Positions 112 through 34,382 of a DNA stretch of 39,014 nt are shown here, one piece after another (the first letter of the stretch is position 1; every line of letters begins with the position of its first letter). The notes beneath the pieces are model-generated. The model was not told the origin of the DNA and ran no database searches. It saw only the letters and a list, made by a program, of their open reading frames with translations. Source of the DNA: Alkalihalobacillus bogoriensis ATCC BAA-922 (lineage in GTDB: Bacteria > Bacillota > Bacilli > Bacillales > Bacillaceae_F); the NCBI RefSeq assembly GCF_000621445.1, contig NZ_JHYI01000039.1:1-39014 (forward strand). Direction: 5' to 3'. The translations under genes and the position numbers were made by a program.

Positions 112-289
112 ATGACATGTGTTCCGTTATTCTTGAAAAAATCATCATAATTCAAACATTATCGGACATCTGTTCCGTTATGGAACATATTCACAGCCCA
201 ATCATCGTGAGTTTCAACAAGTAACGGATCTTGTGTCCGTTAGAATTTTGAAAAGGCATTAACAGCACAAATAACAGAATAGATGTCCG
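112..289. repeat. FFRR palindromic element, copy 1
   Basis: Four copies of an 18-base motif (consensus CGGACATCTGTTCCGTTA): forward at 112-129 (degenerate, ATGACATGTG...) and 163-180, reverse at 222-239 and 272-289. Start-to-start spacing is 51, 59 and 50. The element lies beyond the terminator of the sensor kinase gene. What it does is unknown. Confidence 0.85.
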
Positions 290-317
290 ATAGATACGAG
301 TAAGAACGTACGCAAAA

Positions 318-354
318 GGAAGAAAGCCGACTCTAACTATGTCTGCTTTCTTCC
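318..354 (-). terminator. Terminator of the CheB-CheR-kinase gene
   Basis: Inverted repeat GGAAGAAAGC / GCTTTCTTCC with a 17-base loop, followed on the minus strand by TTTTG. It starts five bases past the stop codon at 359, so it fits a rho-independent terminator for that gene. Confidence 0.75.
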
Positions 355-358
355 TTTG

Positions 359-3300
359 TTACAATATAATTGTTATATTCGTGCCTTTATTAACTTCACT
401 TTGAATGGTCAATACACCATCATGATTATGAATAATCTTTTGTGTCACCATCAATCCAAGCCCCGTTCCTTTTTCTTTCGTTGTAAAAAATGGTTGTCCA
501 ACCTTTTTACGAATATTTTCTGGAATACCCTTACCTGTGTCTTTTATGCTAATTTCGATCGATTCTTCCTGCATTAAGGCTGTAACCGTCAATGTCCCAC
601 CATTTGGCATCGCTTCGATCGCATTTTTTATCAGGTTAATAAACACTTGCTTAATTTGATATTCAACACAACGGATTTGATATTTTTCAGTCTCCAGCTC
701 TTTTATAATTTCAATATTGTTCATATTAGCTTGAGCTTCGAGTAGTCCACATACATCTTTAATAATCGTGATTAGATTTTTCTCTTCAAACTCTATCGAA
801 CGTGGTTTACTTAAAAACAAAAGTTCACTTACTATCATATTTATCCGGTCGAGCTCAGAATCCATAATTTCTAAATACTTTTTTCCTGCTGTGTTTGTTT
901 CCAATAATTTCGTAAAACCTTTTAAAGAGGTTAGAGGATTTCGAATTTCGTGTGCTACCCCTGCAGCAAGCTGACCGATCGCTAACATCATTTCAGACTC
1001 AAGCAACAATGTTTCGGTGTGTTTTTTCTCAGTCACATTTTCGGCAATACGAAGAAAGCTAAATGTATCTCCTTCTTCATTTAAAAGTGGCATCAGTGTG
1101 ACAGACTCCCATACTTGTTCGCCATGCTTAAATCGATGTTCCACTTCACCATCCCACATTTCTCCAGACTCGAGCTTTTTCCATATTTGCTCCTCATCCT
1201 GCGGTAATAAATCATCTAGTGTTGTACCTTTTATATCTCCTTGTTCAATACCTGTTTGCTTCGTAAATTGTTCATTGGCATATTCGATTTGCCCTTCTTT
1301 ATTAAAGATAGATACACTTACAGGGCTGTTTTGTATTGCGTAAGAAAGCAACTGGAGCTGTTCGTTTAATTTTTTCAAATCTGTAATGTCGTGGAATGTT
1401 AAAACAACCCCTTCAAGCTTTTGATTTTTCGACAAATACGGCAGCACTCTAAGAAAATACCATTTCCCATCTTTCGTTGAGATTTCTTTTTCAATGGCTT
1501 GGGAGCTTTCGAGAACTTGTCTTGCATCCTCTACAAAAGAATAATAGGTAAAATTATGCGAAATGTGACTAAGTGGTCTCCCAATATCCACTTCTATTAC
1601 ATTGATTTCTTTCTCTATCGCAGGCGTAAAACGTCGAATACACAAATTATCGTCAAGGAAGATCGTACCGATTTTTGTACTAACTAAGAGATTATCCATA
1701 TCATCTGTTAATTCAGTCAACAACATTATTTTTTCTTGGTATTCTGTATTAACCGTCATTAGCTCTTCGTTTAATGATTGTAGCTCTTCATTTGAACTTT
1801 GCAACTCTTCATTAGCTGCAATTAATTCTTCATTTGTTGATTGCAACTCTTCATTTGAAGTTTCAAGCTCTTCTTTTGTAATTTGCAAATATTCTTTTGT
1901 ATGCTGTAATTCTAATTCTAATTCATCAATCCGCCGAACAAACTCATTACTTGAATCAAATTGTTCTTGTATACGAATATGCGAAACCTTTTGCCCACCT
2001 TCTTCAAAAAAGAGAATGACCAAGTTATCATGATCGTGCAAACGAAAAGGTTTGGCCTTTACATTTATTATTTTCTCTTCCCCTTCTATTTTCACTTTCA
2101 CATCATGATAAAAAACTTCTACTTGGTCTTGACGGACTTTACGAATCGCTGCTCGAACGGTTAAATCCAAATCTTCATGAACAAGTTTTAAAATATGTGT
2201 CGTTAGCTCACCTTGTGGAAATCGAAGAATTTGATGAACGGGACCAGTAGAATGAATCATTTTATTGTCTTCATCAATGATGACAGTAGGTGAAACATAT
2301 TCTTTCAGAATCGCCTTATCAATGGCATCTGAAAATGAATAAGTTGTCGGTTCAAAAGAAGAAAATCCCGTTTTCTTTCGTGACACTCTCACTCGATTTA
2401 TTATATGATCATCATAACTTATCGTATTTGGTGTATATGGACTTTTACTATGACGATATTGATAAATACTCCATTTTCGTATGTAAGGATTAAATAAAGT
2501 TGATTTGCCAACGGTTTCACTCGATCCTAAAAATAAATACCCTTTTGAATGTAAGGCAAAGTGAAATAGCGACATCAGTTTTTGCTGTGATTCTGCTTGT
2601 AAGTAAATGAGAAAGTTCCGACATGAAATCAAATCTAAATTAATAAATGGCGGATTACGTAAAAGATTATGTTGGGCAAATACAATCATCTTTCTAATTT
2701 TTTCACTTACTTGATAGCCTTCACTTGTCTTCGTGAAAAATTGGTTCCGTATTTTTTCAGGTATAGAATGTGCGGCCGATTCAGAGTAAAGCCCTTGACT
2801 CGCAAACTCAATTGCAACCTCATCAATATCTGTAGCAAAGATTTTTATTTGATATCGTTCTTTTATTTCATCCATATACATTTTACATAATATAGCTAGC
2901 GTATACGCTTCTTCCCCTGTTGAACACGCCGCTACCCATATCCGAATTTCTTTCGATTCTTTATTATTTTCAAAAATTTGCGGAATGACTTCCTTTTGTA
3001 ATTCATTAAATGCTTCTGGATCACGAAAGAACGAGGTCACTCCAATTAACAAATCTTTCTTTAAATTTGTGATTTCATCTGGATGATTTATAAGAAATTG
3101 TAAATAATCATGTAAATTAGAGAATCGATTGATCCCCATTCTTTTCTCGATCCTGCGCATTACACTTTTTAATTTATAGTAAGAAAAATCAATATGAAAC
3201 ATCTTTTTAATCAATAATAAAATGTCAGCAAAATCACTGTTTTCATTTAACTGATTTTCTGTTATTGCTAATGGTAAGGACGATATACTATAGTTTCCTT

Positions 3301-3901
3301 GAACAATACTTTGAATCTCTCTCCCAATTTCATCGGCCTTTAGAATATAGTCAACCATTCCTGTTAAAATCGCACTTTTCGGCATCCCGTCAAACTTAGC
3401 ATCTGTTTCTTCTTGAACAATCGTAATTCCGCCATGTGCTTTAATTGCTTGAATTCCTTTAGAACCATCACTCCCCGTTCCTGATAAAATAACTCCGATT
3501 GCATTTGAATTCTGATCTCTCGCTAAGGAGTGAAAAAATAAATCGATTGGTAAATGAAGTTTCGTATCGATTTTTTCTGTTAGTATCAGTTTGCCATTTT
3601 CTAGTGTTACCGTTTGTTTTGGTGGCAATAAATAAACATGATTGGGCTGTATTATCATATTGTGTTCAATTTCCATAATTTTCATTGTTGTATGTCTCGT
3701 CAGGAGCTCTGCCATAAAGCTTTTATAATTTGGGGATAAATGCTGAATAACAACAAAAGCAATCCCCGTCTCAGCCGGTAAATGATCAAGCATCATCTCT
3801 AGTGCTTCTAACCCACCCGCTGAAGCCCCGACTCCTGCAATATAAAACGATTTTCTTTCAAGATTATTTGCTTTGTTAATTTCTACATGAGCTTCATCCA
3901 A
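359..3901 (-). CDS. CheB-CheR-PAS hybrid sensor histidine kinase
   Basis: A multi-domain signalling protein. Residues are numbered from an ATG at 3958 (1199 aa). The CheB methylesterase domain (about 38-225) keeps the catalytic Ser46 (GASAGG), His73 (QHLSP) and the SGTGSDG Asp motif. A CheR methyltransferase domain follows (about 235-500, with AACSTGEEAYTLA). Then comes a long signalling coil of NEELQS heptads, PAS-like regions, a HisKA box (AHEIRNPLTS, His1003) and an HATPase domain with N, G1 (DTGKGIP) and G2 (GTGLGL) boxes. No CheB receiver domain and no membrane segment are seen. The ATG at 3958 has no ribosome site; the TTG at 3901 follows GAGGGAAGGGG, so I prefer it. The family is common as orphan sensors. 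No response regulator or chemotaxis gene is nearby, so partner and signal are unknown. Confidence 0.9.
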   Translation of the reverse strand: MDEAHVEINKANNLERKSFYIAGVGASAGGLEALEMMLDHLPAETGIAFVVIQHLSPNYKSFMAELLTRHTTMKIMEIEHNMIIQPNHVYLLPPKQTVTLENGKLILTEKIDTKLHLPIDLFFHSLARDQNSNAIGVILSGTGSDGSKGIQAIKAHGGITIVQEETDAKFDGMPKSAILTGMVDYILKADEIGREIQSIVQGNYSISSLPLAITENQLNENSDFADILLLIKKMFHIDFSYYKLKSVMRRIEKRMGINRFSNLHDYLQFLINHPDEITNLKKDLLIGVTSFFRDPEAFNELQKEVIPQIFENNKESKEIRIWVAACSTGEEAYTLAILCKMYMDEIKERYQIKIFATDIDEVAIEFASQGLYSESAAHSIPEKIRNQFFTKTSEGYQVSEKIRKMIVFAQHNLLRNPPFINLDLISCRNFLIYLQAESQQKLMSLFHFALHSKGYLFLGSSETVGKSTLFNPYIRKWSIYQYRHSKSPYTPNTISYDDHIINRVRVSRKKTGFSSFEPTTYSFSDAIDKAILKEYVSPTVIIDEDNKMIHSTGPVHQILRFPQGELTTHILKLVHEDLDLTVRAAIRKVRQDQVEVFYHDVKVKIEGEEKIINVKAKPFRLHDHDNLVILFFEEGGQKVSHIRIQEQFDSSNEFVRRIDELELELQHTKEYLQITKEELETSNEELQSTNEELIAANEELQSSNEELQSLNEELMTVNTEYQEKIMLLTELTDDMDNLLVSTKIGTIFLDDNLCIRRFTPAIEKEINVIEVDIGRPLSHISHNFTYYSFVEDARQVLESSQAIEKEISTKDGKWYFLRVLPYLSKNQKLEGVVLTFHDITDLKKLNEQLQLLSYAIQNSPVSVSIFNKEGQIEYANEQFTKQTGIEQGDIKGTTLDDLLPQDEEQIWKKLESGEMWDGEVEHRFKHGEQVWESVTLMPLLNEEGDTFSFLRIAENVTEKKHTETLLLESEMMLAIGQLAAGVAHEIRNPLTSLKGFTKLLETNTAGKKYLEIMDSELDRINMIVSELLFLSKPRSIEFEEKNLITIIKDVCGLLEAQANMNNIEIIKELETEKYQIRCVEYQIKQVFINLIKNAIEAMPNGGTLTVTALMQEESIEISIKDTGKGIPENIRKKVGQPFFTTKEKGTGLGLMVTQKIIHNHDGVLTIQSEVNKGTNITIIL

Positions 3902-4041
3902 TGAAAAATAACCCCTTCCCTCACAAACTCCACATACCCTATTAAAGCTAGTATACAAAAAAAAGAGAGTTCAAAAAAATATTTCCTCACTTTTTGAATA
4001 CTGTGTTTCGTATTGTTCTATTTTCCCTTTCTAAAAATGAG

Positions 4042-4069
4042 AAAAAAGCCTAAATAGTTTCATTTAGAC
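4042..4069 (-). terminator. Terminator after VOC gene
   Basis: On the minus strand CTAAAT-gaaact-ATTTAG is followed by GCTTTTTTC, downstream of the VOC gene stop at 4098. The stem is short (6-7 pairs), so confidence is moderate. Confidence 0.6.
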
Positions 4070-4097
4070 TTCTACATTAAAAGATTATTAGAATCTC

Positions 4098-4457
4098 TTA
4101 ATCGATTCTACAAATCATTAAATGGTTCCCATCGGGGTCTTTAAAATTAAACCAATGACCATGTTCAATCCCCGTTATCACTTCGATTCCTTTGTCTTTC
4201 ATATACTGATAGGCTGCCTCAATATTGTCTGTATTAAAATGGAGCAACGGTGTTCTTGCATAAACATCAGGTGTATAAATTTTGCTATCAAGCACGATGT
4301 TTTGTCCATTATTATCTAGAGGTATGCAACAAAGATGGCCATGAATAATATCAAATGTTGGCTCTAGCTGTAACAACGAACAATACCAGTCACGCGCTTT
4401 TTCAATATCACTTACCGGAATGAAAATAGCGCCAACTTTATTTTGAATAATTCCCAT
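4098..4457 (-). CDS. VOC (glyoxalase/dioxygenase-like) family protein
   Basis: A 119-residue single-domain vicinal-oxygen-chelate fold protein. Family signs are the N-terminal strand GAIFIPVSDIEKARDWYCSL and the C-terminal HWFNFKDPDGNHLMIC, where DPDGN is the classic closing motif. Such proteins bind metal and catalyse isomerisation, ring cleavage or drug sequestration, or act as binding proteins; the substrate cannot be read from sequence. The start is the ATG at 4457 because GAGGGAG lies 10 bases upstream; an in-frame ATG at 4490 lacks such a site. It stands alone, followed by its own terminator. Confidence 0.8.
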   Translation of the reverse strand: MGIIQNKVGAIFIPVSDIEKARDWYCSLLQLEPTFDIIHGHLCCIPLDNNGQNIVLDSKIYTPDVYARTPLLHFNTDNIEAAYQYMKDKGIEVITGIEHGHWFNFKDPDGNHLMICRID

Positions 4458-4581
4458 TAACGACACACTCCCTCTGTATTCTTTTAACACATATTATGAG
4501 TGTGGTTAGGGGAAATTGGAATGTGTAGGAAGGCCCAATTTCTTCAAAATAACAAAACACGATATACCCTCACTTCACGTT

Positions 4582-4761
4582 CGGACATTTGTTCTGCTAT
4601 TTCATAAAAAACTAGCTTTTTTCAATCTTTATCGGACATCTGTTCCGCTATATAACCATATCAGCTTGGAATCAATCGCCATTATGGTTAGTTAACGGAA
4701 CAGATGTCCGATAGCATTTGAAAAAGTGATGTTTTAATTAAATTAGCGGAACCAATGTCCG
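4582..4761. repeat. FFRR palindromic element, copy 2
   Basis: Forward motifs at 4582-4599 and 4633-4650, reverse motifs at 4693-4710 and 4744-4761; spacing 51, 60, 51. The outer pair (first forward, last reverse) shares the variants ATT and GCTA. It sits between two minus-strand genes. Confidence 0.9.
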
Positions 4762-4781
4762 TTAGAATATATCGGTATCTT

Positions 4782-5153
4782 TTACTTTTGCAAACTACTT
4801 AAGTGTTCATGTTTAATTTTCCAATTCCCGTCGTTGTCTTTCACAAATAAATTTGTCGCTCTACCAGAACCTGAAACAAACTGACCATTAGCATATCCTT
4901 CGTAATGGTATGTATAAATACTCGTTGCTGAATACTCATCTACAGAAAGCCACTGGACATCTGTAGCAGAATATACCTCTTCTTGTATAACAGTCCAAGC
5001 GTTTTCGAAGTATTGTTGAATCTCTTCTTCTGTTTTACAAGTTTTGTCAGTGAACCAATATACAGCATCTTCATGCAGGAGCTGTTTTACGTTGGCGAAG
5101 TTATGTGTATTTGTTGCTTCTATATATTGCCTTAATGCTTTTTCATAACTCAT
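4782..5153 (-). CDS. NTF2-like / SnoaL-type protein
   Basis: A 123-residue protein of the NTF2-like (SnoaL/ketosteroid-isomerase) fold type. The N-terminal helices (ALRQYIEATNTHNFANVKQLL) and HEDAVYWF are followed by strands ending GSGRATNLFVKDNDGNWKIKHEHLS, the usual family pattern of a closing beta-sheet with a DGxWKIxHxHxS tail. Such folds serve as small-molecule binding cups or isomerases; no function can be assigned. The ATG at 5153 is chosen because AGGTGG lies 8 bases upstream; the GTG at 5165 overlaps that site. The next gene upstream (5247-5621) encodes another protein of the same fold class, so the two may be an old pair. Confidence 0.75.
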   Translation of the reverse strand: MSYEKALRQYIEATNTHNFANVKQLLHEDAVYWFTDKTCKTEEEIQQYFENAWTVIQEEVYSATDVQWLSVDEYSATSIYTYHYEGYANGQFVSGSGRATNLFVKDNDGNWKIKHEHLSSLQK

Positions 5154-5246
5154 TATTAATACCACCTTTTAAAGGAATCCCTGTTTTTGTACTACCTTCA
5201 GAACACAACGTTTCGTTTCTAGCATTTTTTCGTTCTCCTCTGTTTG

Positions 5247-5621
5247 TTAAGGTCTCTTGAATTCATTTACTTTTAAACTTGTAATCGTTCCTTGATGAAA
5301 AGACAACTGCCATCTTTCATCAATGTATTTCCATATCGAGCTTCGTAATGTATTACGATTTCTCGTTTTATCCTCAATAAAATATGTTGTTAGAACAATA
5401 TCATCCGCTAACATTTGCAAATCAAAATGATGCAACGTCATATCAGTTAATACAACTCCCGTTTCCAAACACTCTTCTTTCGTAAACATAAACCCAGAGC
5501 TTCCGATTTCATAAAAATCATCTGCCAAAATCTTGTTCATTTCCTCCCGCGATTGTCGTACGGAAAGAGCCGTGTGACGTTCTTCTAATCTTTTAATCTG
5601 CGCTTTTAATTGTTCACTCAT
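5247..5621 (-). CDS. DUF4440-like NTF2-fold protein
   Basis: A 124-residue soluble protein resembling the DUF4440 group of the NTF2-like fold: an N-terminal helix (LKAQIKRLEERHTALSVRQSREEMNKILADDF), then YEIGSSGFMFTKEECL, a strand-rich centre (DMTLHHFDLQMLADDIVLTTYFIED) and the RSSIWKYIDERWQLSFHQGT ending typical of that family. The start follows AAGGGAGGAAGAAAA, a strong ribosome site. It is separated from the next gene by about 90 bases and might be cotranscribed with it. No catalytic residues can be named; role unknown. Confidence 0.75.
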   Translation of the reverse strand: MSEQLKAQIKRLEERHTALSVRQSREEMNKILADDFYEIGSSGFMFTKEECLETGVVLTDMTLHHFDLQMLADDIVLTTYFIEDKTRNRNTLRSSIWKYIDERWQLSFHQGTITSLKVNEFKRP

Positions 5622-5646
5622 TTTTCTTCCTCCCTTAGCTATTAGA

Positions 5647-5674
5647 AAAGGCCATCTGTCTAACAGAGGCCTTT
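5647..5674 (-). terminator. Terminator after methyltransferase gene
   Basis: Minus strand AAAGGCC-(tCTGT-tag-ACAGat)-GGCCTTTT forms a two-part stem just past the stop at 5680. It separates the methyltransferase from the DUF4440-like gene. Confidence 0.7.
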
Positions 5675-5679
5675 CTACA

Positions 5680-6441
5680 TTAATTCATTGTCGCTTTTAT
5701 AATAAACCGATGTTGATTTACTTCAAAATAACCTTTCTCATTAATGAGTAAATGAATGTCATACAACCGTTCTTTGAAAGCTTCAACAGTGAAATTTGGA
5801 ACTTGCCACGATACTGCTTTTAAATAATAGATTAATGCCCCGACATCATAAAAGCGTAGGTGCGGATACTCTTCTTTTGCTGTCAATACAGTAAACCCAT
5901 GCTGTTCGAGTTCTTTTTTTGCAAAAGTTTCATTCCAATGTGCGTATGGTCCTTTTTCTGAAACACTGAGCGCTTTATTTATTCCGATACAATCAAATCC
6001 CCCCACTTGTTGCGTAAAAAACAAGCCGCCTCGTTTCAGCACTCGTTTTACTTCTTGTGGGTCATATGCTTCATGTCGATTTATAATGACAGCAAATTGA
6101 TTGTCCTCAAAAGGAAGTGGAGCATCTTCTTCAATCGCCACAACGGTTACACCTAATGGGGTTAACCTTTGTTTTGCTACGCTAACATTTGGCTTATACC
6201 CTTCTGTCGCCACACACACCGGCGGAAAGGGCTGAAGCTTCGAAAGAAACTCGCCTCCCCCTGTTCCCATATCTAATAAGGAAGAAGTTGTTTGCACAAG
6301 CGACATTGCCATACTTCCATATGACCATGAAAGTAAGCTATTATTCATTCTTCCTGTTTCGGTGATAAAGGAAAAATCCCAGCCCGAGAAAGGTTCTTCT
6401 ATACTGTTTAGCAATTGATAAAACTGTTGTTTTTGATCCAT
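5680..6441 (-). CDS. Class I SAM-dependent methyltransferase
   Basis: A 253-residue Rossmann-fold methyltransferase. Motif I is LLDMGTGGGEFLSKL (SAM-binding glycine loop, about residues 55-69), followed by CVATEGYKPNVSVAKQRL (acidic ribose-binding residue region) and the post-motif strand FAVIINRHEAYDPQEVKRVLKRGGLFFTQQVGG. The C-terminal part resembles small-molecule methyltransferases of the UbiE/Methyltransf_11 type. The substrate is not predictable. The start follows AACGGAGGGAAAAG. A long upstream stretch with an extended -10 promoter candidate and a short leader ORF precedes it. Confidence 0.85.
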   Translation of the reverse strand: MDQKQQFYQLLNSIEEPFSGWDFSFITETGRMNNSLLSWSYGSMAMSLVQTTSSLLDMGTGGGEFLSKLQPFPPVCVATEGYKPNVSVAKQRLTPLGVTVVAIEEDAPLPFEDNQFAVIINRHEAYDPQEVKRVLKRGGLFFTQQVGGFDCIGINKALSVSEKGPYAHWNETFAKKELEQHGFTVLTAKEEYPHLRFYDVGALIYYLKAVSWQVPNFTVEAFKERLYDIHLLINEKGYFEVNQHRFIIKATMN

Positions 6442-6512
6442 ATCTTTTCCCTCCGTTACTCTTTTATTTTAATCGTAGAGTATTTCATTTGCGGAGGAGC
6501 TCTTGGACGGTT

Positions 6513-6539
6513 TTATATGTTGTGTTCATAACCTTTCAT
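6513..6539 (-). other. Possible 8-codon leader ORF upstream of methyltransferase
   Basis: An AGAGGTGG ribosome site is followed by ATG and an 8-residue reading frame (MKGYEHNI) ending in TAA. It lies about 70 bases upstream of the methyltransferase gene. A second overlapping short frame (MNTTYKTVQELLRK) follows. Nothing shows it is translated. Confidence 0.25.
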
Positions 6540-6576
6540 ATTGTTCCACCTCTCTTCGCTTTCAATTATTTTTCAT

Positions 6577-6585
6577 AGTATACCA
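6577..6585 (-). promoter_or_regulatory. Extended -10 promoter candidate for methyltransferase gene
   Basis: Minus strand TGGTATACT is a TGn-extended -10 box close to consensus, about 140 bases upstream of the methyltransferase start; no good -35 box is seen. The rest of 6590-6700 shows no recognisable gene. Confidence 0.35.
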
Positions 6586-6704
6586 GATTATCGAGTTAAT
6601 TTCTTCCATTTTATGTTATTGCTGCTCAAGTGGAACCTCTATTTCAAGTTGTGGTTCATCGTTAGATAAAAGTCATAGTTCTCAAAGATTTTTCTATATC
6701 CGTT

Positions 6705-6883
6705 CGGACATCTATTCCGTTAATTTCACTAAAACCACTCATTCCCCTAATCGTTCGGACATCTGTTCAGCTATTTGCTTCATTTCACGTTACTTCCTTG
6801 CTTTTTTCCGTATGTAACGGAACAGATGTCCGTAACGATTTGGAAAGAGGCATTTTTTCTTTCATTAACGGAATAGATGTCCG
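6705..6883. repeat. FFRR palindromic element, copy 3
   Basis: Forward motifs at 6705-6722 and 6756-6773, reverse motifs at 6815-6832 and 6866-6883; spacing 51, 59, 51. The outer pair carries the variant CTATT/AATAG and is exactly complementary; the inner pair carries CTGTT/AACAG. It is nearly the same sequence as copy 4 on the other side of the GNAT gene. Confidence 0.92.
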
Positions 6884-6965
6884 ATGATTCGTCCCATTAT
6901 TCCAAGGCTTTTTTTCTAATCCCGTTTTTCTTAATCTACTTGAACTCTGATACTATTTAAATGTT

Positions 6966-7676
6966 TTATCCCTTATCAAATATATGCACATCACCAATTT
7001 TCTTAAATCCTAATGATTTATAAAGAGGAACCGCCATTTCGGTCGCTACTAGAACACTGCCAATCGTATCAACACTATTCATCTCCTGTAACAAGGTCTT
7101 ACAAACTTCTTTTGCTATTCCACGCTTTCGATAATGAGGGTGTGTAAAAACTTGATGAATACAAACCATTTTATTAACTAGCATCCCTTTTCCATAACAA
7201 ATAGGGTTTTCTTGCTTATAAAAGTATGAAGAAACAATCTTTTCATTGTCAAAATCAATTACTTCTCTTTGATAAAAACTATTTATAACATTCGCTGTTT
7301 CTGTTTGTTTGACCTTATATACATGTTGATTAGGAGAATATCGTGGAATAGGTGCAAGTGACATGAGTATATCGTGGAACTTTAATTCATAACCGTACTG
7401 TTCACACTTTTTATACCATTCTGGTGTGATTAAGGTCTTCGGGGAAAAACAAAATATCCAGTGGGGCTGTTCAAATATTTGTAGATTATTATTCTCTTTA
7501 ATAAGGTATGGAGTCTTAACCATAATACCGTGCTTTCTCCCACCAACTTCTTTATTGAAAGTAATTTGAACATATTCGTTGGCATACCTAATATCTTCTA
7601 TCACCTTTTCTTTTAGCTTACAAAAGCTTTCAATGTAAGTATCAACGGCACTAGAAAAAGTAATGAACTCGGACAT
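6966..7676 (-). CDS. GNAT family N-acetyltransferase
   Basis: A 236-residue protein with a GNAT domain in its C-terminal half. The acetyl-CoA pyrophosphate-binding signature is HPHYRKRGIAKEVCKTLL (the R/Q-x-x-G-x-A/G loop, about 178-195), preceded by strand MLVNKMVCIHQVFT and followed by LVATEMAVPLYKSLGFKKIGDVHIF, the usual closing motif. The N-terminal half (1-125) is not recognised. It probably acetylates a small molecule or protein amine; substrate unknown. The start follows GAAGGGGGAAGGCGTAAT. The gene is bracketed by two nearly identical repeat elements (6705-6883 and 7756-7934), which may mean it moved or duplicated with them. Confidence 0.82.
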   Translation of the reverse strand: MSEFITFSSAVDTYIESFCKLKEKVIEDIRYANEYVQITFNKEVGGRKHGIMVKTPYLIKENNNLQIFEQPHWIFCFSPKTLITPEWYKKCEQYGYELKFHDILMSLAPIPRYSPNQHVYKVKQTETANVINSFYQREVIDFDNEKIVSSYFYKQENPICYGKGMLVNKMVCIHQVFTHPHYRKRGIAKEVCKTLLQEMNSVDTIGSVLVATEMAVPLYKSLGFKKIGDVHIFDKG

Positions 7677-7755
7677 ATTACGCCTTCCCCCTTCATCATT
7701 TTCAATTTATCTTGGCTAGAAGATCATCCCTTTTTTCACACTACGAATATCCATA

Positions 7756-7934
7756 CGGACATCTATTCCGTTAATGTAACTAAAATTACCCATTTCCCAT
7801 TTCGTTCGGACATTTGTTCCGCTATTTTCGTCATTTCAAGTTACTTCCTTGCTTTTTCCCGTATGTAACGGAACAGATGTCCGTAACGATTTGGAAAGAG
7901 GCATTTTTTCTTACATTAACGGAATAGATGTCCG
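7756..7934. repeat. FFRR palindromic element, copy 4
   Basis: Forward motifs at 7756-7773 and 7807-7824, reverse motifs at 7866-7883 and 7917-7934; spacing 51, 59, 51. Spacers as well as motifs match copy 3 closely, for example the shared run from GTATGTAACGG to CATTTTTTCTT. Confidence 0.92.
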
Positions 7935-7969
7935 ATAGACTCGTCTATGCAAGAAGTTCACACGCCCAG

Positions 7970-9754
7970 CTATTTAAACCATAATTTCTTATAGCTCACC
8001 CGTCCGTACCGTTCTAATGAAACTCCTTTTAACGCCGCTTCCTTGACATGAACAGCATGACGCCGGTGAAATAAGTTGATGACCACACGTCTGTCAATTA
8101 GACCTTTTTCTAATTCTATCAGTTTTTTCAGTTGGTTTGTCCGTTCTTTCTCTTGCCGAATGTCTACTAGTTTTTTATGAAGTTCACTTGTTAACTCACC
8201 ATCTAATAATGGCCGGACAAAGGCACCTTTCAAATGAAATAACCGATAAAACGAATAGACTAAATCATGTCCAAAAGCGAAGCCACCCATTACGATGTCC
8301 GCTTCTTGTAACCTATCTTTTTTTATCAGTTCATCAATTGGAAAAACAGCGGTTTTTACGTTCACTCCGATGTTGGACCATTCTTTTTGGAGCCAACTTA
8401 TTTCTCTTAACACCGATGCATTTTTTCTAAGTTGCGTTCCGTAAAGGGTGATTGTTTCACCCTTGTATCCCGCTTTAGCTAACAAGGCTTTTGCCTTTTC
8501 TTTATTATATTCATGACCTGTGGCACAGTTCGTTTCACTAATTAATTGACTTTCAGCAGGGAAATATCGTTCCTTTTCAATGTCATCACATAGAGCTTCT
8601 TTATTTATTGCATATGCTAATGCTTCTCGGAAAAACTCTGACTGGTGCAAACCATCCTTCCATAAATTAAACGTAATGTATGTTGCTCCTTCTTCAGGAA
8701 ATTCCACTTCTTGCCACGCCATCGGGGTATCATCTGTTTGCTTATTTACATCAAAATAAGAAATCATATTTGGTACTTCAGTTTCATCCGGCATCGTAAT
8801 AATTTCGACTTTATCTAAAAAAGGACGTCCATTGAAATAGTACGGATGGACTTCTAGTCTCATCAATGTATCATCATGAACCGTTACCTTAAACGGACCT
8901 GTTCCAATAGGATACTTTGTGAAGTTAGGTTCGCTTTTGATGACATCAAGTGGGACAATCGACAACTGTTCATGACACAAGGCATGCGGAAATAAATAAT
9001 CCGGCCCATAAAGCTGAAACTGAACAACCCACTTTTTTATTTTCTTTATTTCTTTTATATTCGTAACCATCCAACCATTCGGGAAACTTCCGGTTTGTAA
9101 CCGTTGAAAGGTTTCCACCACATCATCAGCGCTACACTCGCGGCCATGGTGAAACAAGACCCCTTTTCTTAAATAAAAGGTCCATGTACAGCCAGAAGAA
9201 TCAACTTCCCAATAATGGGCTAATGATGGCTCCACTTGATTTGTTTTTTCATTAAAAACTAGCAATGTATCAAACAAGTGGTTGACGATGTGGTTTTCAT
9301 GAATAGACTTTGTAAGAGGCGGGTCTAGATGAACAATGGAATGATAAAACGGATAGCGAAGAAGATGAACAGAGTCATCCTCTTTTGTTTCTTCAAAATA
9401 TCCAAATTGGCCTTGTAACCACTCATTTATTTTTTTCCTATAGTAAGGTGACATGGCAGAGAGTAATTGTAAGCCTTCTCTATAGTGATTTGCTTTAAAA
9501 TACGTTTTTGCCATCGAATACATAAGCTCATCTTGATTTTTTAATAACGTTAACGTCGGCTTTTTTCCCCTTCCATATTCCACTTCCCAGTCAATCCACT
9601 GCTTTTCCTTCATCTCATTAATCACTTTTTTTGTATATCTTGGGGAACAGCATAAAAGGTCAGAGAGTTCTTTTACGGTTATGTGGAAAGGATCATTTTC
9701 TTTTTGACTAGGTAATCCTTTTCGTAGATGTAGATAATGCTCTGTAATTTTCAT
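7970..9754 (-). CDS. SgrR-type regulator with solute-binding domain
   Basis: A 594-residue protein with an N-terminal winged-helix region (about 1-110; VKELSDLLCCSPRYTKKVINEMKEKQWIDW is the helix-turn-helix and GRGKKPTL the wing), fused to a family-5 extracellular-type solute-binding domain (about 130-560; LAHYWEVDSSGCTWTFYLRKGVLFHHGRECSADDVV and YPIGTGPFKV are typical of SBP_bac_5). It has no signal peptide, so it acts in the cytoplasm as in SgrR: the binding domain senses a small ligand and the N-terminus binds DNA. The start follows GGGAGGG. It is divergent from an MFS exporter gene 119 bases away, which it most likely controls; the ligand is unknown. Confidence 0.88.
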   Translation of the reverse strand: MKITEHYLHLRKGLPSQKENDPFHITVKELSDLLCCSPRYTKKVINEMKEKQWIDWEVEYGRGKKPTLTLLKNQDELMYSMAKTYFKANHYREGLQLLSAMSPYYRKKINEWLQGQFGYFEETKEDDSVHLLRYPFYHSIVHLDPPLTKSIHENHIVNHLFDTLLVFNEKTNQVEPSLAHYWEVDSSGCTWTFYLRKGVLFHHGRECSADDVVETFQRLQTGSFPNGWMVTNIKEIKKIKKWVVQFQLYGPDYLFPHALCHEQLSIVPLDVIKSEPNFTKYPIGTGPFKVTVHDDTLMRLEVHPYYFNGRPFLDKVEIITMPDETEVPNMISYFDVNKQTDDTPMAWQEVEFPEEGATYITFNLWKDGLHQSEFFREALAYAINKEALCDDIEKERYFPAESQLISETNCATGHEYNKEKAKALLAKAGYKGETITLYGTQLRKNASVLREISWLQKEWSNIGVNVKTAVFPIDELIKKDRLQEADIVMGGFAFGHDLVYSFYRLFHLKGAFVRPLLDGELTSELHKKLVDIRQEKERTNQLKKLIELEKGLIDRRVVINLFHRRHAVHVKEAALKGVSLERYGRVSYKKLWFK

Positions 9755-9820
9755 TTGAATTTCCCTCCCACTTAAAAGGTGAACATATTAAAATGATATG
9801 AACACTTTTTAGACACCTTT

Positions 9821-9849
9821 TTGAAATTTACACTAATTGTAGCATAAAT
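9821..9849 (+). promoter_or_regulatory. SigA-type promoter for MFS gene
   Basis: TTGAAA at 9821-9826, a 17-base spacer and ATAAAT at 9844-9849, ending 24 bases before the start at 9874. Just upstream (9777-9810) lie TGAACA-type repeats (GTGAACAT and ATGAACAC) flanked by AAAAGG and CTTTTT; these could be the binding site of the divergent SgrR-like regulator. Confidence 0.55.
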
Positions 9850-9873
9850 TTCTAGTTTGATGAGGTGTTTATT

Positions 9874-11106
9874 ATGAAAGAAGCCGTTCAATATTCTGAA
9901 ACACAAAAGCCTTTATCCCTTTGGAGGAACCGTCAATTTCTTTTGTTATTAAGTGGAAGTTCTATATCTAATCTGACATTTTACCTTTTTACACTTGCTT
10001 TGCCGATTATTATTTATGAACTTACAACATCCACCTTAGCGATGGGTACGATGAGAGCGATAGAGTTTCTCCCAAATCTACTACTAGCAATCTTTATTGG
10101 TGTTATCGTCGACCGTTTTAGCCGAAAGAAAGTTCTATTAAGTTCAGTTTCAGTACAGGCGATAGCTCTCGGTATGATCATTGTGATTCTCGCTTCTTCC
10201 CATTTACAATTATGGCATTTGTATTGTTTAGGTTTTATTTTATATACTGCTAGCTATACATTTGGGAATGCCTATCATACCGTCTTACCACTAATTGTAG
10301 GAAAAGCTCAGTTAGCTTCTGCTAATTCGATTATATCCTTTTCCCAAACTACGATTAGGTTAGTTGGTCCAGCCTTGGCTGGCGTCATATTATTGGTTCT
10401 AAATTATATATTCGGATTGACTATTACACTCATTGGTTTACTTTGCTTGCTTCTGTTCACTTGTTTGTTAAAGGTGCCAGAAGATCAAACATTACATGCA
10501 GAAAAGAAAAGTATATTCGCCGATATTAAAGAAGGGTGGAACTGTTTACTTGCCAATAAAGAACTTTGGCATTTAACGATTATGGTTCTGTTAAGCAATA
10601 TTGCATCAGCAGCCACATTAGCGATATTAGTCTTTTATGCACTTGATTCGATGAAGGTCATCGAAAGCCAGCTCGGTATTATATTATCAGGGTCTGCAGT
10701 AGGTGGATTAATCGCAGCTTTAATTGCTAAGAAAATTACGAAGTGGATAAAGAGAGGCCCTTTGTTTTTGCTTTCACTCGGACTTGAGAGTTTCGGCTAT
10801 CTTCTCCTCTTCTTTTCTTTTGATTGGTATTGGTTAGCGATCGGGATGTTTTTTAATGGATTTACAGGCGGAATTATCAATATTCATTACTTTACCCTTC
10901 GCCAAGAAACAACGCCGAACCATTTACTTGGCAGAGTGGCAGGTACTTCTTCGATGATGATGAAATTAGCCGTCCCTTTTTCCTTTTTAAGTGTTGGGGC
11001 GTTAGGAGAAGTGATTCCTGTTCATTATATTTTCCTAGGATCATGTTTGTTGACGATTTTAATTATATTGTACTTGGCAAAAACACCAGTGGCTAAGATG
11101 AAATAA
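9874..11106 (+). CDS. MFS family efflux transporter
   Basis: A 410-residue, roughly 12-segment membrane protein of the major facilitator superfamily, in the MFS_3/macrolide-exporter-like group. Motif A between segments 2 and 3 is visible as GVIVDRFSRKKVLL. A central cytoplasmic loop (EDQTLHAEKKSIFADIKEGWNCLLANKELWHLT) resembles the loop of that group. It probably exports a hydrophobic compound by proton antiport; the cargo is unknown. The ATG at 9874 is used because GAGGTG lies 6 bases before it; the GTG at 9865 is inside that ribosome site. It is divergent from the SgrR-type regulator and has its own terminator. Confidence 0.88.
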   Translation: MKEAVQYSETQKPLSLWRNRQFLLLLSGSSISNLTFYLFTLALPIIIYELTTSTLAMGTMRAIEFLPNLLLAIFIGVIVDRFSRKKVLLSSVSVQAIALGMIIVILASSHLQLWHLYCLGFILYTASYTFGNAYHTVLPLIVGKAQLASANSIISFSQTTIRLVGPALAGVILLVLNYIFGLTITLIGLLCLLLFTCLLKVPEDQTLHAEKKSIFADIKEGWNCLLANKELWHLTIMVLLSNIASAATLAILVFYALDSMKVIESQLGIILSGSAVGGLIAALIAKKITKWIKRGPLFLLSLGLESFGYLLLFFSFDWYWLAIGMFFNGFTGGIINIHYFTLRQETTPNHLLGRVAGTSSMMMKLAVPFSFLSVGALGEVIPVHYIFLGSCLLTILIILYLAKTPVAKMK

Positions 11107-11110
11107 GAGA

Positions 11111-11148
11111 AAAAAGCGCAGGCTATTTTCATACGCCTACGCTTTTTT
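11111..11148 (+). terminator. Terminator after MFS gene
   Basis: AAAAAGCGCAGGC / GCCTACGCTTTTTT with one mismatch and an 11-base loop, immediately after the stop codon. Confidence 0.85.
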
Positions 11149-11286
11149 ATAGTTTGTAATTTTTGAAAAATAAAAAAAGAAGGAAATATTTTCTTTTTAT
11201 TGTATAGTTATTAAGAAATACTTGTTCAACTGAACGATTAGTAGAACAATCGGTAAGAGCAATTAGAAAAAAAGAGGTGAAACCAA

Positions 11287-11445: not shown

Positions 11446-11470
11446 GGATGATCCGCTAATCGAAGTGTCA

Positions 11471-11494
11471 GTCATATCATTGATATGGCTTTTT
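11471..11494 (+). terminator. Terminator after small membrane ORF
   Basis: GTCATATC-att-GATATGGC followed by TTTTT; 8 pairs with one G-T. It lies 25 bases past the stop of the small ORF, which supports that ORF being a real transcription unit. Confidence 0.75.
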
Positions 11495-14058: not shown

Positions 14059-14238
14059 CGGACATACAGTACGCTATTTTAGAAAAAACAAGTATTTTTT
14101 CATCCGTTAAGGACATCTGTTCCGTTATTTCACTAGTAACAGTATTAATTTTACTAGTTTAACGGTGAATAACGGAACAGATGTCCGAACCTCTACTGAA
14201 TATCGCAATTTCACCCTATTTAACGGAATATTTTTCCG
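14059..14238. repeat. FFRR palindromic element, copy 5
   Basis: Forward motifs at 14059-14076 (degenerate) and 14110-14127, reverse motifs at 14170-14187 and 14221-14238 (degenerate); spacing 51, 60, 51. The inner pair is exactly complementary over TGTTCCGTTA. The outer copies are mutated but still in register, which argues for age rather than recent arrival. Confidence 0.85.
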
Positions 14239-14241
14239 TTC

Positions 14242-15598: not shown

Positions 15599-15726
15599 CG
15601 GACATTTGTTCCGCTATTCTACAAAAAATCATGTGTTCTATGATTCTATCGGACATCTATTCCGTTATCCTTCTTTTTTCTCATCCTATTTTAGTTATTA
15701 TAATAAAATAGCGGAACAAATGTCCG
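15599..15726. repeat. FFRR palindromic element, copy 6 (FFR, last motif lost)
   Basis: Forward motifs at 15599-15616 and 15650-15667, reverse motif at 15709-15726; spacing 51 and 59. The fourth motif, expected at about 15760, would fall inside the 3' end of the gene at 15744-16193 and is not recognisable. Confidence 0.85.
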
Positions 15727-29934: not shown

Positions 29935-30516
29935 ATGGAGAGTCATCTTTTAGCAAATTTATACCGCGTTCGATACATTGAACGTTGGAGTTTAATGAGA
30001 AATGTAATGAAAGAAAATGTAGCCGAACATTCCTATCATGTTTCGCTTTTAACACACTGCTTATGTTCCATTGCTTCTGAAATTTATGGGAAACAAATTA
30101 ATACAGAGAAAGCGGTAACGTTATCACTGTTTCACGATGTAACAGAGGTATTTACGGGCGATATCCCCACACCGGTGAAACATCATAACCGGGATATTCT
30201 AAATAACTTCCGTGATATTGAAAAGCTTGCTGCGGAAAAATTAGTGAAGCAAGCACCAAATGAGTTAAAGCATGTTTATCAAGAAGCCATTTGTGATTCT
30301 ACTGATGACGAGTTGATGAATTATATAAAAGCGGCTGACCTGATTGATGCTTATTTAAAATGTACAATTGAACTGTCAGCAGGAAATCGTGAATTTGTCG
30401 TAGCAAAAAAACAAATTGAAGAAAAAATTATCCAACTAAACATGCCTGAAGTAGACTATTTTCTTCGTCATTTTGCTCCTAGCTTTGAAAAAACATTGGA
30501 CGAGATTTCAGAATAG
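29935..30516 (+). CDS. yfbR: 5'-deoxynucleotidase, HD family
   Basis: A 193-residue HD-domain phosphohydrolase of the YfbR type. Metal ligands are visible as His33 in VAEHSYHVSLL, His-Asp in LSLFHDVTEVFTGDIPTPVK and Asp in IKAADLIDAYLKC. YfbR dephosphorylates deoxyribonucleoside 5'-monophosphates and so helps balance dNTP pools. The start ATG at 29935 follows GGGAAGTGG. An FFRR element lies downstream. Confidence 0.88.
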   Translation: MESHLLANLYRVRYIERWSLMRNVMKENVAEHSYHVSLLTHCLCSIASEIYGKQINTEKAVTLSLFHDVTEVFTGDIPTPVKHHNRDILNNFRDIEKLAAEKLVKQAPNELKHVYQEAICDSTDDELMNYIKAADLIDAYLKCTIELSAGNREFVVAKKQIEEKIIQLNMPEVDYFLRHFAPSFEKTLDEISE

Positions 30517-30533: not shown

Positions 30534-30711
30534 CGGACATACGTTCCGTTATTCTTATGTTTTTTCACCTTTTTCTACTGCAAACGGACATCCATTCCGC
30601 TATTTCACTTAAATTCAAAGATATTTTCGGATATCCATTAACATAACGGAACAGATGTCCGTAACATCTTGAAAACTAGCTTTTTTTTTGAAATAACGGA
30701 TCTCATGTCCG
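30534..30711. repeat. FFRR palindromic element, copy 7
   Basis: Forward motifs at 30534-30551 and 30585-30602, reverse motifs at 30644-30661 and 30694-30711; spacing 51, 59, 50. An extra partial motif (TTCGGATATCCATTA, about 30627-30640) lies in the centre. The element fills the gap between the convergent yfbR and epimerase genes. Confidence 0.88.
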
Positions 30712-30720: not shown

Positions 30721-31608
30721 TTAGCTAACAATATGATCGAGTGTTTTTTCTAAAGTATCAAACTTAAATTGATAACCTTCCTGTTGCAATCGTTCAGGAA
30801 GAACCCAACGACTCTTTAACACAAGCTCCGTTTCGGTCTTAATAAAGACAGCCCCTAACTCAAGCATCCATTTCGGTGCAGGTAATCCAAATGACCTATT
30901 CATCGCTGTACGCATATGCTTCATTAGCTCACGATTAGTGACAGGATTAGGAGCAGCGCCATTAAATACTCCACTTAGGTCTTCTCTATCTTGTAAAAAT
31001 AAAACAATTTGATATAAATCCTCAACATGAATCCAACTGAACTTTTGATTTCCTTTTCCTTGTGCTCCTCCAAGTCCAAATTTTACAAGGTTTTGATACG
31101 GCGTCATTACCCCGCCACCTTTTCCTAGTACTATTGCTATTCGTAACGCAATTTGTCTTGTCTTTGGTAAATCAAACGAAAAGAACGCTTCTTCCCACGC
31201 TTTGGCAACATCAACAGAGAAACCAGACCCTAATTCTCCTTTTTCTTCTGTCATCGCCCGATCTTCTGCATGACGATAGATTGTCGCTGTACTAGAGTTA
31301 ACCCAAAGTTTCGGGGGATGTTCGCATTGTTTAATGACTTCACCAAGTAGTTTCGTAGTTCTCACTCGTGAGCCCATAATTTCCTGTTTATTTTTTTCGT
31401 TATATCTACAGTTAACTGATTTACCTGCTAGATTAATAAGCAATTCTGCCTCATTGACTGCCTCAACAAGTGCAGTATGATCATCCCATGATATATGTTG
31501 TGGTTGTCTAGAGATAATTTTCACATCATATCCGTTATTCCGCCATTGTTTCTCAAAATACTGACCAATAAAACCTGTACCACCTGCTATGACTATTTTT
31601 TTCGTCAT
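30721..31608 (-). CDS. TIGR01777 family epimerase (SDR)
   Basis: A 295-residue extended short-chain dehydrogenase-like protein. The NAD(P)-binding loop is VIAGGTGFIGQYF, followed by INLAGKSVNCRY (the family-typical loop) and a C-terminal DUF1731 region (PVTNRELMKHMRTAMNRSFGLPAPKWMLELGAVFIKTETELVLKSRWVLPERL). The classical Tyr-x-x-x-Lys is altered (SVDVAKAWEEA). Function is unknown despite wide occurrence. The start is the ATG at 31608, which follows AATGGAG; an in-frame ATG at 31632 lacks a site. Confidence 0.88.
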   Translation of the reverse strand: MTKKIVIAGGTGFIGQYFEKQWRNNGYDVKIISRQPQHISWDDHTALVEAVNEAELLINLAGKSVNCRYNEKNKQEIMGSRVRTTKLLGEVIKQCEHPPKLWVNSSTATIYRHAEDRAMTEEKGELGSGFSVDVAKAWEEAFFSFDLPKTRQIALRIAIVLGKGGGVMTPYQNLVKFGLGGAQGKGNQKFSWIHVEDLYQIVLFLQDREDLSGVFNGAAPNPVTNRELMKHMRTAMNRSFGLPAPKWMLELGAVFIKTETELVLKSRWVLPERLQQEGYQFKFDTLEKTLDHIVS

Positions 31609-31837
31609 ATGTATCGACTCCATTCCTAGCATTCTTTTCTTTATATTATAACGTTATTTACAATCTTTTAACGATTTATTTTCAATCCCTCTTACTAAAG
31701 TAGTATCGGCTACAAAGCATGCTTCAAGTATTTTTATAAATATCCATAAATGATTTTATCTAATAATCCATGACACATTCCACCCTGATTTTCATACTGT
31801 GATAAAACCTACAAAAAAAGGGGAGGAATGTGTCCTT

Positions 31838-33410: not shown

Positions 33411-33452
33411 AATAAACCAAGAGAGTCATTCTCTTGGTTTATTAAAATTTTT
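33411..33452 (+). terminator. Terminator after amidase gene
   Basis: AATAAACCAAGAGA-gtcat-TCTCTTGGTTTATT, a perfect 14-pair stem followed by AAAATTTTT, just past the amidase stop. Confidence 0.9.
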
Positions 33453-33470
33453 CATTCCATCTATCTTTTC

Positions 33471-34175
33471 TCATTGTTTTTGCACAACATATGTCACTGC
33501 ATTTGTTTTCAATAATACTGCTTTATTATCGCGATTAATTTGAAAAGACAAAGGCTTAATTGTGGATTGAAGAAGTTTCCAGCCGTAATAAGCTTGCTGG
33601 AGTTTATTCAACATCTCAGTTGTAGAGAGGTTTACTTCAATGAGAGGATTTAAATTCTCATTTGTTTGCATATCGATTTCTTCTAGTTCTGAATTGACAA
33701 TAAGACAGTTGATCCCATTTCCTTTTGTTGCTGCTTCGATTCGTGAAAGGACATTATCTAATGTCTGTTCAGAATCTACATGCTCTAGACAAGAAACGGC
33801 AACGATAAAGTCATATTCATTTGTTCCCATTGAATAAGTGCCAATGTCAGATTGAATAGCTTTAATCTTATTTTCAACACCATATTGTTTACTATATTGT
33901 TTTAACTTTTGTAAAGCCGATTCAAGAATATCTACACAAACAACATCCCCTTCTCTGTCTACCATGTTTTGCGCGATAGGGATACTATTTCTACCAACAC
34001 CGCTACCTAAATCCAACACCTTTATTTTTTCATTCTGAGATAACATACAAAATGAATCGATTACCGTTTTTACTGGTTTATGTAACCAAGAACCTTCTTC
34101 AAATAATCGGTAGTTTTCATAACAAGACTCATGATACCGTTTTTCCTCTTCCCTTATTCGCTGAATGTGATCCAA
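33471..34175 (-). CDS. SAM-dependent methyltransferase
   Basis: A 234-residue class I methyltransferase: motif I KVLDLGSGVGRNSIPIA, motif II VVCVDILESALQKLKQY, and post I DFIVAVSCLEHVDSEQTLDNVLSRI. The C-terminal half has a strand-rich cap. It resembles Methyltransf_25/TehB-like proteins; TehB-type tellurite or thiol methylation is possible but not shown. The start is TTG with GGAGG 5 bases upstream; no better start is present. It stands alone, with a repeat element upstream. Confidence 0.82.
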   Translation of the reverse strand: MDHIQRIREEEKRYHESCYENYRLFEEGSWLHKPVKTVIDSFCMLSQNEKIKVLDLGSGVGRNSIPIAQNMVDREGDVVCVDILESALQKLKQYSKQYGVENKIKAIQSDIGTYSMGTNEYDFIVAVSCLEHVDSEQTLDNVLSRIEAATKGNGINCLIVNSELEEIDMQTNENLNPLIEVNLSTTEMLNKLQQAYYGWKLLQSTIKPLSFQINRDNKAVLLKTNAVTYVVQKQ

Positions 34176-34253
34176 AACTGCCTCCTTGTTACTTCACTTT
34201 AAATTTCTTAAATCATTTTATGTTTGACCTGACAGATCAAACATTTTCCTGTA

Positions 34254-34382
34254 CGGACATTTGTTCCGCTATTCCCTCCAATTCAGCCTCGTATCTCTCA
34301 TCAAATGTAAAATAATGAAATTCATGTCCGGACCCCTACGAAAAATATGGACAATTTGCAATAATAACGGAACAAATGTCCG
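34254..34382. repeat. FFRR palindromic element, copy 8 (FRR, first motif lost)
   Basis: Forward motif at 34254-34271, degenerate reverse motif at 34313-34330 and reverse motif at 34365-34382; spacing 59 and 52. The first forward motif, expected near 34203, is not recognisable. It lies between the methyltransferase start and the YczE-like gene. Confidence 0.8.

What the first reader, a model, noticed from the sequence alone, without database searches (positions are those of the whole stretch)
112..34382. A dispersed palindromic element with fixed forward-forward-reverse-reverse geometry
Eight intergenic elements (112, 4582, 6705, 7756, 14059, 15599, 30534, 34254) are each built from an 18-base motif, CGGACATCTGTTCCGTTA. 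I count 30 motif copies; six elements have all four copies and two have three. The order is always F, F, R, R, so each element is a palindrome of about 180 bases. None lies inside a gene body. I do not recognise the family. Density is about one per 5 kb, but none is seen between 15.8 and 30.5 kb. Such an element could be a non-autonomous mobile sequence, a protein-binding array, or a source of structured RNA.
Basis: seen in the sequence. Interest (0 to 1): 0.92.

Follow-up and report, generated by a model that had tools for sequence, protein, structure and literature searches.

The report
Four-motif curved palindromes between bacterial genes
Many short DNA palindromes, most of them holding four copies of one motif at rigid, helix-matched spacing, sit between genes in this Bacillus-like bacterium and some relatives, and look more like docking sites for an unknown protein than like random debris.

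Summary
In detail: eight elements, 30 motif copies, order F-51-F-59/60-R-51-R. They belong to a genome-wide family: 528 motif hits at up to 2 mismatches, control 1. Full-length relatives with the same geometry but other motif "dialects" occur elsewhere in class Bacilli: 22 of 398 genomes at E<=1e-5, own included.

Beyond the finding:
1. A- and T-runs in the spacers are phased at about 10.25 bp, and tandem copies with intact neighbours mostly step by about 10 bp, so the DNA should be curved with the sites on one helix face.
2. In 22 orthologous copies in a sister species core motif positions changed 1.4%, spacers 7.6%, four-fold sites 17.1%: the core is selected in place.
3. All four copies are about equally conserved, and arms hardly covary: double-stranded DNA recognition fits better than RNA.

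Elements are enriched between convergent genes, depleted between divergent ones.

Best reading: a dispersed, once-mobile, BIME-like docking array for an unidentified protein. No partner protein, target duplication or clean empty site was found. I recognised no described family in Rfam or the papers searched; it fails most REP/RAYT tests.

The parts
112..289 (.). Element 1: F1 112-129 (3 mismatches), F2 163-180 (0), R1 222-239 (4), R2 272-289 (2)
4582..4761 (.). Element 2: F1 4582, F2 4633, R1 4693, R2 4744; all four copies kept at the syntenic site of sister species G006
6705..6883 (.). Element 3: F1 6705, F2 6756, R1 6815, R2 6866; visibly similar to element 4 along its whole length
7756..7934 (.). 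Element 4: F1 7756, F2 7807, R1 7866, R2 7917
14059..14238 (.). Element 5: F1 14059 (6 mismatches), F2 14110 (1), R1 14170 (0), R2 14221 (4); between convergent ORFs 13022-13798(+) and 14281-15423(-)
15599..15726 (.). Element 6, three copies: F1 15599, F2 15650, R1 15709; no R2 here (13 mismatches at the expected place), though the G006 site has all four
30534..30711 (.). Element 7: F1 30534, F2 30585, R1 30644, R2 30694; between the convergent ORFs 29935-30516(+) and 30721-31632(-), 18 and 10 bp from their ends
34254..34382 (.). Element 8, three copies: F1 34254, decayed R1 34313 (5 mismatches), R2 34365; no F2 here (13 mismatches), though the G006 site has all four

Best explanation
Each element is a dispersed extragenic palindrome carrying four binding sites for one DNA-binding protein, probably a dimer because the motif is a quasi-palindrome (TAWCGGA-N7-TCCGYTA). 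The sites lie on one face of DNA that is intrinsically curved by A-tracts phased with the sites, so bound protein would hold about 180 bp in a compact bent or wrapped complex. Copies arose by whole-element copying (inferred mobility) and many are then kept in place because the complex is useful at gene ends, for example as a transcription or supercoil boundary between genes. SHOWN: fixed four-site geometry, phasing of A/T runs, in-place conservation of the core, similar conservation of all copies, placement away from divergent gene pairs, polarity with the local gene strand. INFERRED: the protein, its dimer state, real curvature and wrapping, and the boundary function.
For: (a) Geometry is kept while spacer sequence is not: modal spacings in 68/72, 67/72 (59 or 60) and 62/72 in the own genome; 50/51-58/60-50/51 in most elements of genomes from eight other families, exceptions being e.g. 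L063, L210, L211, L213. (b) A/T runs of 3 or more are phased: at 10.25 bp 0.56 vs 0.35 after shuffling spacers, z 11.2, n=67; of 19 periods only 10, 10.25 and 10.5 are raised. 31 elements from other genomes: z 8.4 at 10.0 and 6.2 at 10.25, 0.1 at 10.5, negative at the 7 other periods. (c) Distances from R to the next F with intact spacing on both sides, 14 cases: 32/33 (7), 42/43 (2), 52/53 (3), 133 (2). (d) Orthologs in G000 and G006, 22 pairs: core 17/1204, variable positions 49/344, spacer 173/2274, four-fold sites 2057/12043; the core is lowest in each of three regions taken apart. (e) Core bits of the four copies 1.73-1.81; ortholog core changes 2, 3, 4, 6 of 280 each: no clear strand preference. 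(f) 71 elements: 30 convergent, 37 co-directional, 4 divergent, against 64, 187, 58 of 309 gaps of at least 250 bp; Fisher p 0.0004 for convergent, 0.007 for divergent (gaps that hold elements are in the background). (g) No match in phages (2 element queries), plasmids (3) or viral contigs (1 pattern).
Against: No partner protein found. Spacer length is not more constant than other non-coding DNA between orthologs (54 of 64 same vs 89 of 117 control windows, p=0.25), and indels are as frequent per base in spacers (26/2274 vs 58/3878), so the length constraint rests on the family-wide geometry. Elements share ancestry, so the phasing z-scores are not independent events. Spacers differ more than non-coding flanks (173/2274 vs 214/3878), and A/T runs in spacers are only mildly more conserved than the rest (42/778 vs 131/1496), so selection on curvature itself is weakly supported at best. 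Outer copies F1 and R2 match each other at variable positions beyond chance (89 vs 66.8 expected), which a plain four-site array does not predict. Elements turn over between more distant species.
Confidence: 0.5

Rival explanations
1. Selfish non-autonomous mobile element (MITE or REPIN-like): the four motifs are transposase sites, two per end in direct order and inverted between ends, and copies have no host role.
For: Ten loci of G745 compared in two subfamilies: element identity 0.76-0.89 (1.0 for the close pair L278/L279) while flanks are often near 0.5, e.g. L275/L278 0.84 against 0.49 and 0.45. Dialects and copy numbers differ between genomes. Tandem arrays. Outer copies F1 and R2 covary like terminal repeats.
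Against: Purifying selection on the core at fixed orthologous sites. No F-F ... R-R pair enclosing genes within 10 kb in 1.579 Mb (one pair with a 223-bp step and weak R copies). No target duplication or clean empty site. RAYT/IS200 domain present in carriers and non-carriers alike, not found in carriers G270, G159 (80% complete) and G211.
Confidence: 0.3
2. RNA element at 3' ends: the palindrome is transcribed and acts as a terminator or mRNA-stabilising hairpin.
For: Stable predicted folds (12 elements, mononucleotide shuffles). Sense strand more stable in 32 of 47 co-directional cases, orthologs of both genomes counted; 27 of 37 in G000 alone. In sense orientation inner position 15 is U-G in 25, Watson-Crick in 17 and mismatched in 5 of 47; in antisense 25 are mismatched. 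Median distance to the upstream stop 72, to the downstream start 104.
Against: RNAalifold on 44 diverse elements: 14 pairs, 2 with compensation, covariation term -0.13 kcal/mol. Spacer arms no more complementary within an element than between elements (0.464 vs 0.484, n=30; 0.446 vs 0.493, n=27). Polarity follows the local majority strand even between convergent genes (15:3). Intrinsic-terminator scan of window 1-16500 finds 8, 9.7 expected, one of them beside element 5 and one at the end of element 6. Central spacing is conserved although a loop length should be free.
Confidence: 0.15
3. Ordinary operator array for a transcription regulator of the neighbouring genes.
For: Palindromic motif, repeated sites.
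Against: 87 clusters in 32% of the genome and only 4 of 71 between divergent genes.
Confidence: 0.03

Closest known systems
REP / BIME elements (enterobacteria, pseudomonads)
   Same: Many dispersed extragenic palindromic motifs combined in regular arrays, species-specific sequence.
   Different: BIMEs alternate REP orientation (abstract of PMC2817692 as shown in the listing); here the order is F,F,R,R at 51-59-51. No GTAG/GTGG foot and no linked RAYT gene seen.
REPINs (PMC3116915, passages read)
   Same: Conserved 16-18-mers inverted around poorly conserved spacers; tandem clusters.
   Different: Four motif copies instead of two; compensatory spacer changes, called common in REPINs, not seen; no RAYT beside the elements examined; phased A/T runs.
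bcr1 and related repeats of the B. cereus group (PMC3446304, passages read)
   Same: Interspersed intergenic repeats in Bacillales of similar length (bcr1 given as 147-167 bp in PMC2267715); bcr1-bcr3 are called MITE-like and often lie in UTRs.
   Different: The title of the 2004 bcr1 paper (reference list) calls it specific to the B. cereus group; sequences could not be compared. This family occurs in several orders or families of Bacilli.
Bhal-1 of Bacillus halodurans (PMC2267715, passages read)
   Same: 74 bp, 36 copies, listed as type I with a stem-loop: the size would fit the inner F2-R1 part (77 bp here).
   Different: Its sequence is not in the passages seen, so identity could not be tested; no four-site structure is mentioned there.
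Transposon ends with several transposase sites (Tn7, Mu; recalled, from no call)
   Same: Direct sites within an end, inverted between ends, helical phasing and bending.
   Different: No genes between ends in the sequence searched, no TG..CA termini, no target duplication seen.

Membership tests
REPIN / RAYT-REP | conserved inverted end motifs around a variable spacer | tested here: met
   core 1.73-1.81 bits on average; spacers low outside the A/T runs
REPIN / RAYT-REP | compensatory changes in the spacer (hairpin kept) | tested here: not met
REPIN / RAYT-REP | RAYT gene flanked by copies | tested here: not met
   PF01797 in 36 of 40 genomes, carriers and non-carriers alike. Of 30 loci with about 1.5 kb on each side, one (L227, IS200-type gene of G005) has a diverged FFRR and one (L242, G235, RAYT-like size) a weak two-motif hit with 4 mismatches each; 28 have none. 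RAYT-like loci of the own genome and of G006 were not fetched.
REPIN / RAYT-REP | GTAG/GTGG tetranucleotide at the hairpin foot | tested here: not met
   consensus before CGG is ATAR on one side and NTAW on the other; requirement from PMC6006769, passages read
BIME | REPs in alternating orientation | tested here: not met
   69 of 87 clusters are plain F,F,R,R; most others are partial or tandem forms of it
BIME | binding of gyrase, IHF or Pol I | not testable with these tools
   needs binding assays; this feature is recalled
MITE | terminal inverted repeats | tested here: met
   F1 and R2; their variable positions covary
MITE | target-site duplication at a filled versus empty site | tested here: inconclusive
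   no clean empty site
MITE | autonomous relative with the same ends | tested here: inconclusive
   none within 10 kb spans in 1.579 Mb of the own genome at up to 3 mismatches; 68% of the genome was not read
bcr1-bcr18 | same consensus | not tested
   sequence not available in the passages read
Rfam RNA family | covariance-model match at the element | tested here: not met
   at gathering scores for the whole window; lax scans of window 4400-8100 and five relatives gave on elements only matches far below the gathering score

The most novel reading that the evidence does not exclude
A chromosome-wide docking system of Bacilli: an unidentified DNA-binding protein, coevolving with species dialects of its site, assembles on tens to hundreds of four-site curved-DNA arrays placed between genes, often between convergent ones, and oriented with the local gene strand. 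It would act as supercoil, transcription or nucleoid boundaries, as an independent counterpart of BIMEs that uses neither REP sequences nor RAYT.
Probability: 0.3. Interest if true: 0.85.

Novelty: new variant of a known kind. Interest (0 to 1): 0.62.

Why it matters
Whether dispersed extragenic palindromes are selfish debris, RNA structures or chromosome architecture is a long-standing question. This family makes it testable: its four-site helical geometry is kept in carriers from several families of Bacilli while the sequence is not, and orthologous copies show in-place selection on the motif core. Finding the binding protein could reveal a new chromosome-organising or gene-boundary factor in Gram-positive bacteria.

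Tried and rejected
RNA structure as main function: little covariation. Intrinsic terminators: not enriched in the stretch scanned. RAYT/Y1 transposase as partner: no association. Phage or plasmid carriage: no matches for two element queries in phages, three in plasmids and one pattern in viral contigs. Gene-bearing version (F-F ... genes ... R-R): none within 10 kb spans in 1.579 Mb. Empty sites: between G000 and G006 one G000 site without an element in G006 but with diverged surroundings, one reduced to F-R, and one G006 site (D:32078) without an element in G000, again diverged. G257/G212 (about 91% identical) gave only composite repeats of about 700 bp in which this element lies among other palindromic modules. 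Congeners of R. marisflavi are only about 70% identical, too far for junctions. Absence by strict pattern proved partly wrong: G005 has 3 hits with it but 88 matches, both strands counted, with the profile. Spacer-length constancy: not significant. A resemblance of TGTCCGATA to serine-resolvase half-sites is recalled and was not pursued.
Full report
OBSERVATION. The window holds eight elements built from CGGACATCTGTTCCGTTA, six as F,F,R,R and two with one copy missing, 30 motif copies in all; chance expectation at up to 3 mismatches is 0. The genome of the window (5.0 Mb, unnamed) has 528 hits at up to 2 mismatches, against 1 for the reversed control. In 1.579 Mb of it I found 87 clusters with at least 3 copies, 69 of them plain F,F,R,R, and 72 elements with full geometry: F-F 51 in 68, F-R 59 or 60 in 67, R-R 51 in 62.

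ANATOMY. The core of each copy is near-invariant, positions 7-9 and 15 vary, and the spacers are poorly conserved except for an A-run about 26-29 bases and a T-run about 37-40 bases after each motif start. With the adjoining bases the motif reads TAWCGGA-N7-TCCGYTA, a quasi-palindrome. A/T runs are phased at 10.25 bp: 0.56 observed against 0.35 in 40 spacer shuffles, z 11.2, 67 elements; of 19 periods tested only 10, 10.25 and 10.5 were raised. In 31 elements from other genomes (up to two per locus, some closely related) z is 8.4 at 10.0 and 6.2 at 10.25. Shared ancestry makes these z-scores non-independent. In tandem copies with intact spacing on both sides (14 cases, several in one array) the R-to-next-F distance is 32/33 in 7, 42/43 in 2, 52/53 in 3 and 133 in 2; of 14 further cases with one intact side, 5 have 32, 33 or 42, and the rest 20 (2), 25, 28, 38, 63, 65, 77 and 118.

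SELECTION IN PLACE. Sister species G006 is largely syntenic in the stretches compared. Of 43 element clusters in 779 kb of G000, 25 could be mapped, 17 could not (one or both flanks found no collinear match in the G006 stretches held) and 1 was at an edge; G006 has motifs at 24 of the 25 sites, one of them reduced to F-R, and none at one. In the other direction 28 of 37 were mapped; one G000 site has no motif and two are unclear. In 22 alignable pairs (2 skipped for low coverage, 1 for an irregular pattern) the divergence is: core 17/1204 (1.4%), variable motif positions 49/344 (14.2%), spacer 173/2274 (7.6%), four-fold sites of nearby genes 2057/12043 (17.1%). The core is lowest in each of three regions taken apart. 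Non-coding flanks differ by 214/3878, so spacers evolve faster than flanks. All four copies share the constraint, which suits recognition of double-stranded DNA.

RNA OR DNA. Predicted folds are stable and the sense strand is often the more stable one (32 of 47). But spacer arms are not complementary beyond the family consensus, and an alignment of 44 diverse elements shows 14 consensus pairs with 2 compensated. The asymmetry at inner position 15 follows the local majority gene strand: 11:2 and 25:3, with 31 of 72 elements uninformative (Fisher p 7e-6), including between convergent genes (15:3). This points to replication or regional direction at least as much as to transcription. Outer copies F1 and R2 match each other at variable positions more than chance (0 of 2000 permutations in G000, n=39; p 0.002 in G006, n=35; the two genomes share orthologs), while no paired F1-R2 change was seen in 20 ortholog pairs. 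This correlation is unexplained.

PLACEMENT. Of 71 elements with two neighbours, 30 lie between convergent, 37 between co-directional and 4 between divergent ORFs; for all gaps of at least 250 bp the numbers are 64, 187 and 58 of 309 (simple ORF caller, gaps with elements included; Fisher p 0.0004 for convergent and 0.007 for divergent). Co-directional elements lie nearer the upstream stop (median 72) than the downstream start (median 104).

DISTRIBUTION. A strict motif pattern has at least one hit in 33 of 397 genomes of the order, many with only 1-3 hits; the reversed control hits 6. High counts are patchy. A sequence-only profile (R1, from 44 elements) hits 22 of 398 genomes in the class at E<=1e-5, own included, 14 of them in one family (f50) of 4.7-7.5 Mb genomes outside the order, and 4 of 398 in the phylum at E<=1e-6, three of them in the class. 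These are lower bounds, since the filter is strict. G005, in the same genus, looked almost empty with the strict pattern but gives 88 profile matches; G745 reaches the limit of 150 scored and G554 gives 38 (a palindrome is counted on both strands, so sites are about half). Dialects differ, for example CGGACATACAGTCCCTTATTT in G005 (L260, L266) and AACGGACACTGCGTCCGTTATTT in G745 (L249), while the full-length profile alignment and the geometry are kept in most. Named carriers are Gracilibacillus lacisalsi DSM 19029 and Rossellomorea marisflavi Bac144. No matches in phage, plasmid or viral-contig collections for the queries tried.

MOBILITY. In G745 ten loci in two subfamilies share 0.76-0.89 identity over the element (1.0 for one neighbouring pair) while flanks are often near 0.5 (e.g. 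L275/L278: 0.84 against 0.49 and 0.45); some pairs share flank as well (L249/L261, left 0.81). So whole elements, sometimes with extra modules, have been copied. No precise empty site or target duplication could be shown. At one site G005 has an element and the syntenic gap of about 136 bp in G000 has none. The Y1 transposase domain shows no association.

INTERPRETATION. The four-site geometry, helical phasing, strand-neutral constraint and in-place selection are best explained by a bound protein on curved DNA; the protein, its action and the benefit are inferred. Functionally this resembles BIMEs, but of the four REP/RAYT-defining features tested three were not met, so I do not file it there. 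The purely selfish reading is the main rival; it explains spread and dialects but not in-place conservation of the core. In PMC2267715 (passages read) the Bhal-1 repeat of B. halodurans (74 bp, 36 copies) might be the inner part of this family; its sequence was not in the passages seen. Searches of the held papers by terms and by five motif strings found no description that I recognised as this family (listings, and passages of five papers). Subscription papers are mostly outside that library, so prior description is not excluded.

Noticed in passing
window 36667-39009: Cluster of 19 tRNA genes on the minus strand within 2.4 kb.
   Followed up: no
window 15404-15488 (-): c-di-GMP-I riboswitch (75.5 bits) overlapping the first codons of the called 380-aa ORF 14281-15423(-); the true start is probably downstream. 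Element 6 lies upstream of it.
   Followed up: no
G257 (L060, L202, L203) and G212 loci: The FFRR element sits inside composite repeats of about 700 bp with other palindromic modules (CCTGCGGG-type), whose junctions carry half-motifs TAACGGA/TCCGTTA.
   Followed up: partly
L227 (G005:C1:1202616-1205972): A diverged FFRR element lies about 300 bp downstream of an IS200-type transposase domain in G005.
   Followed up: no
G000 C1:79832 and its G006 counterpart: In G006 the element is reduced to a single F-R pair, as if both direct repeats had recombined.
   Followed up: partly
G000 C1:328098-328400: An F-F pair is followed 223 bp on by a weak R-R pair (3 mismatches each), perhaps an element with an enlarged centre.
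   Followed up: no
window 18588-21881 (+): ORF of 1097 aa, subtilisin-like from reading the translation, with a repeated acidic D/N/E-rich tract past its middle (not searched).
   Followed up: no
G942:C60:52387-52571 (L280): One nearly full-length match in a genome outside the class; transfer or contamination cannot be told apart.
   Followed up: no
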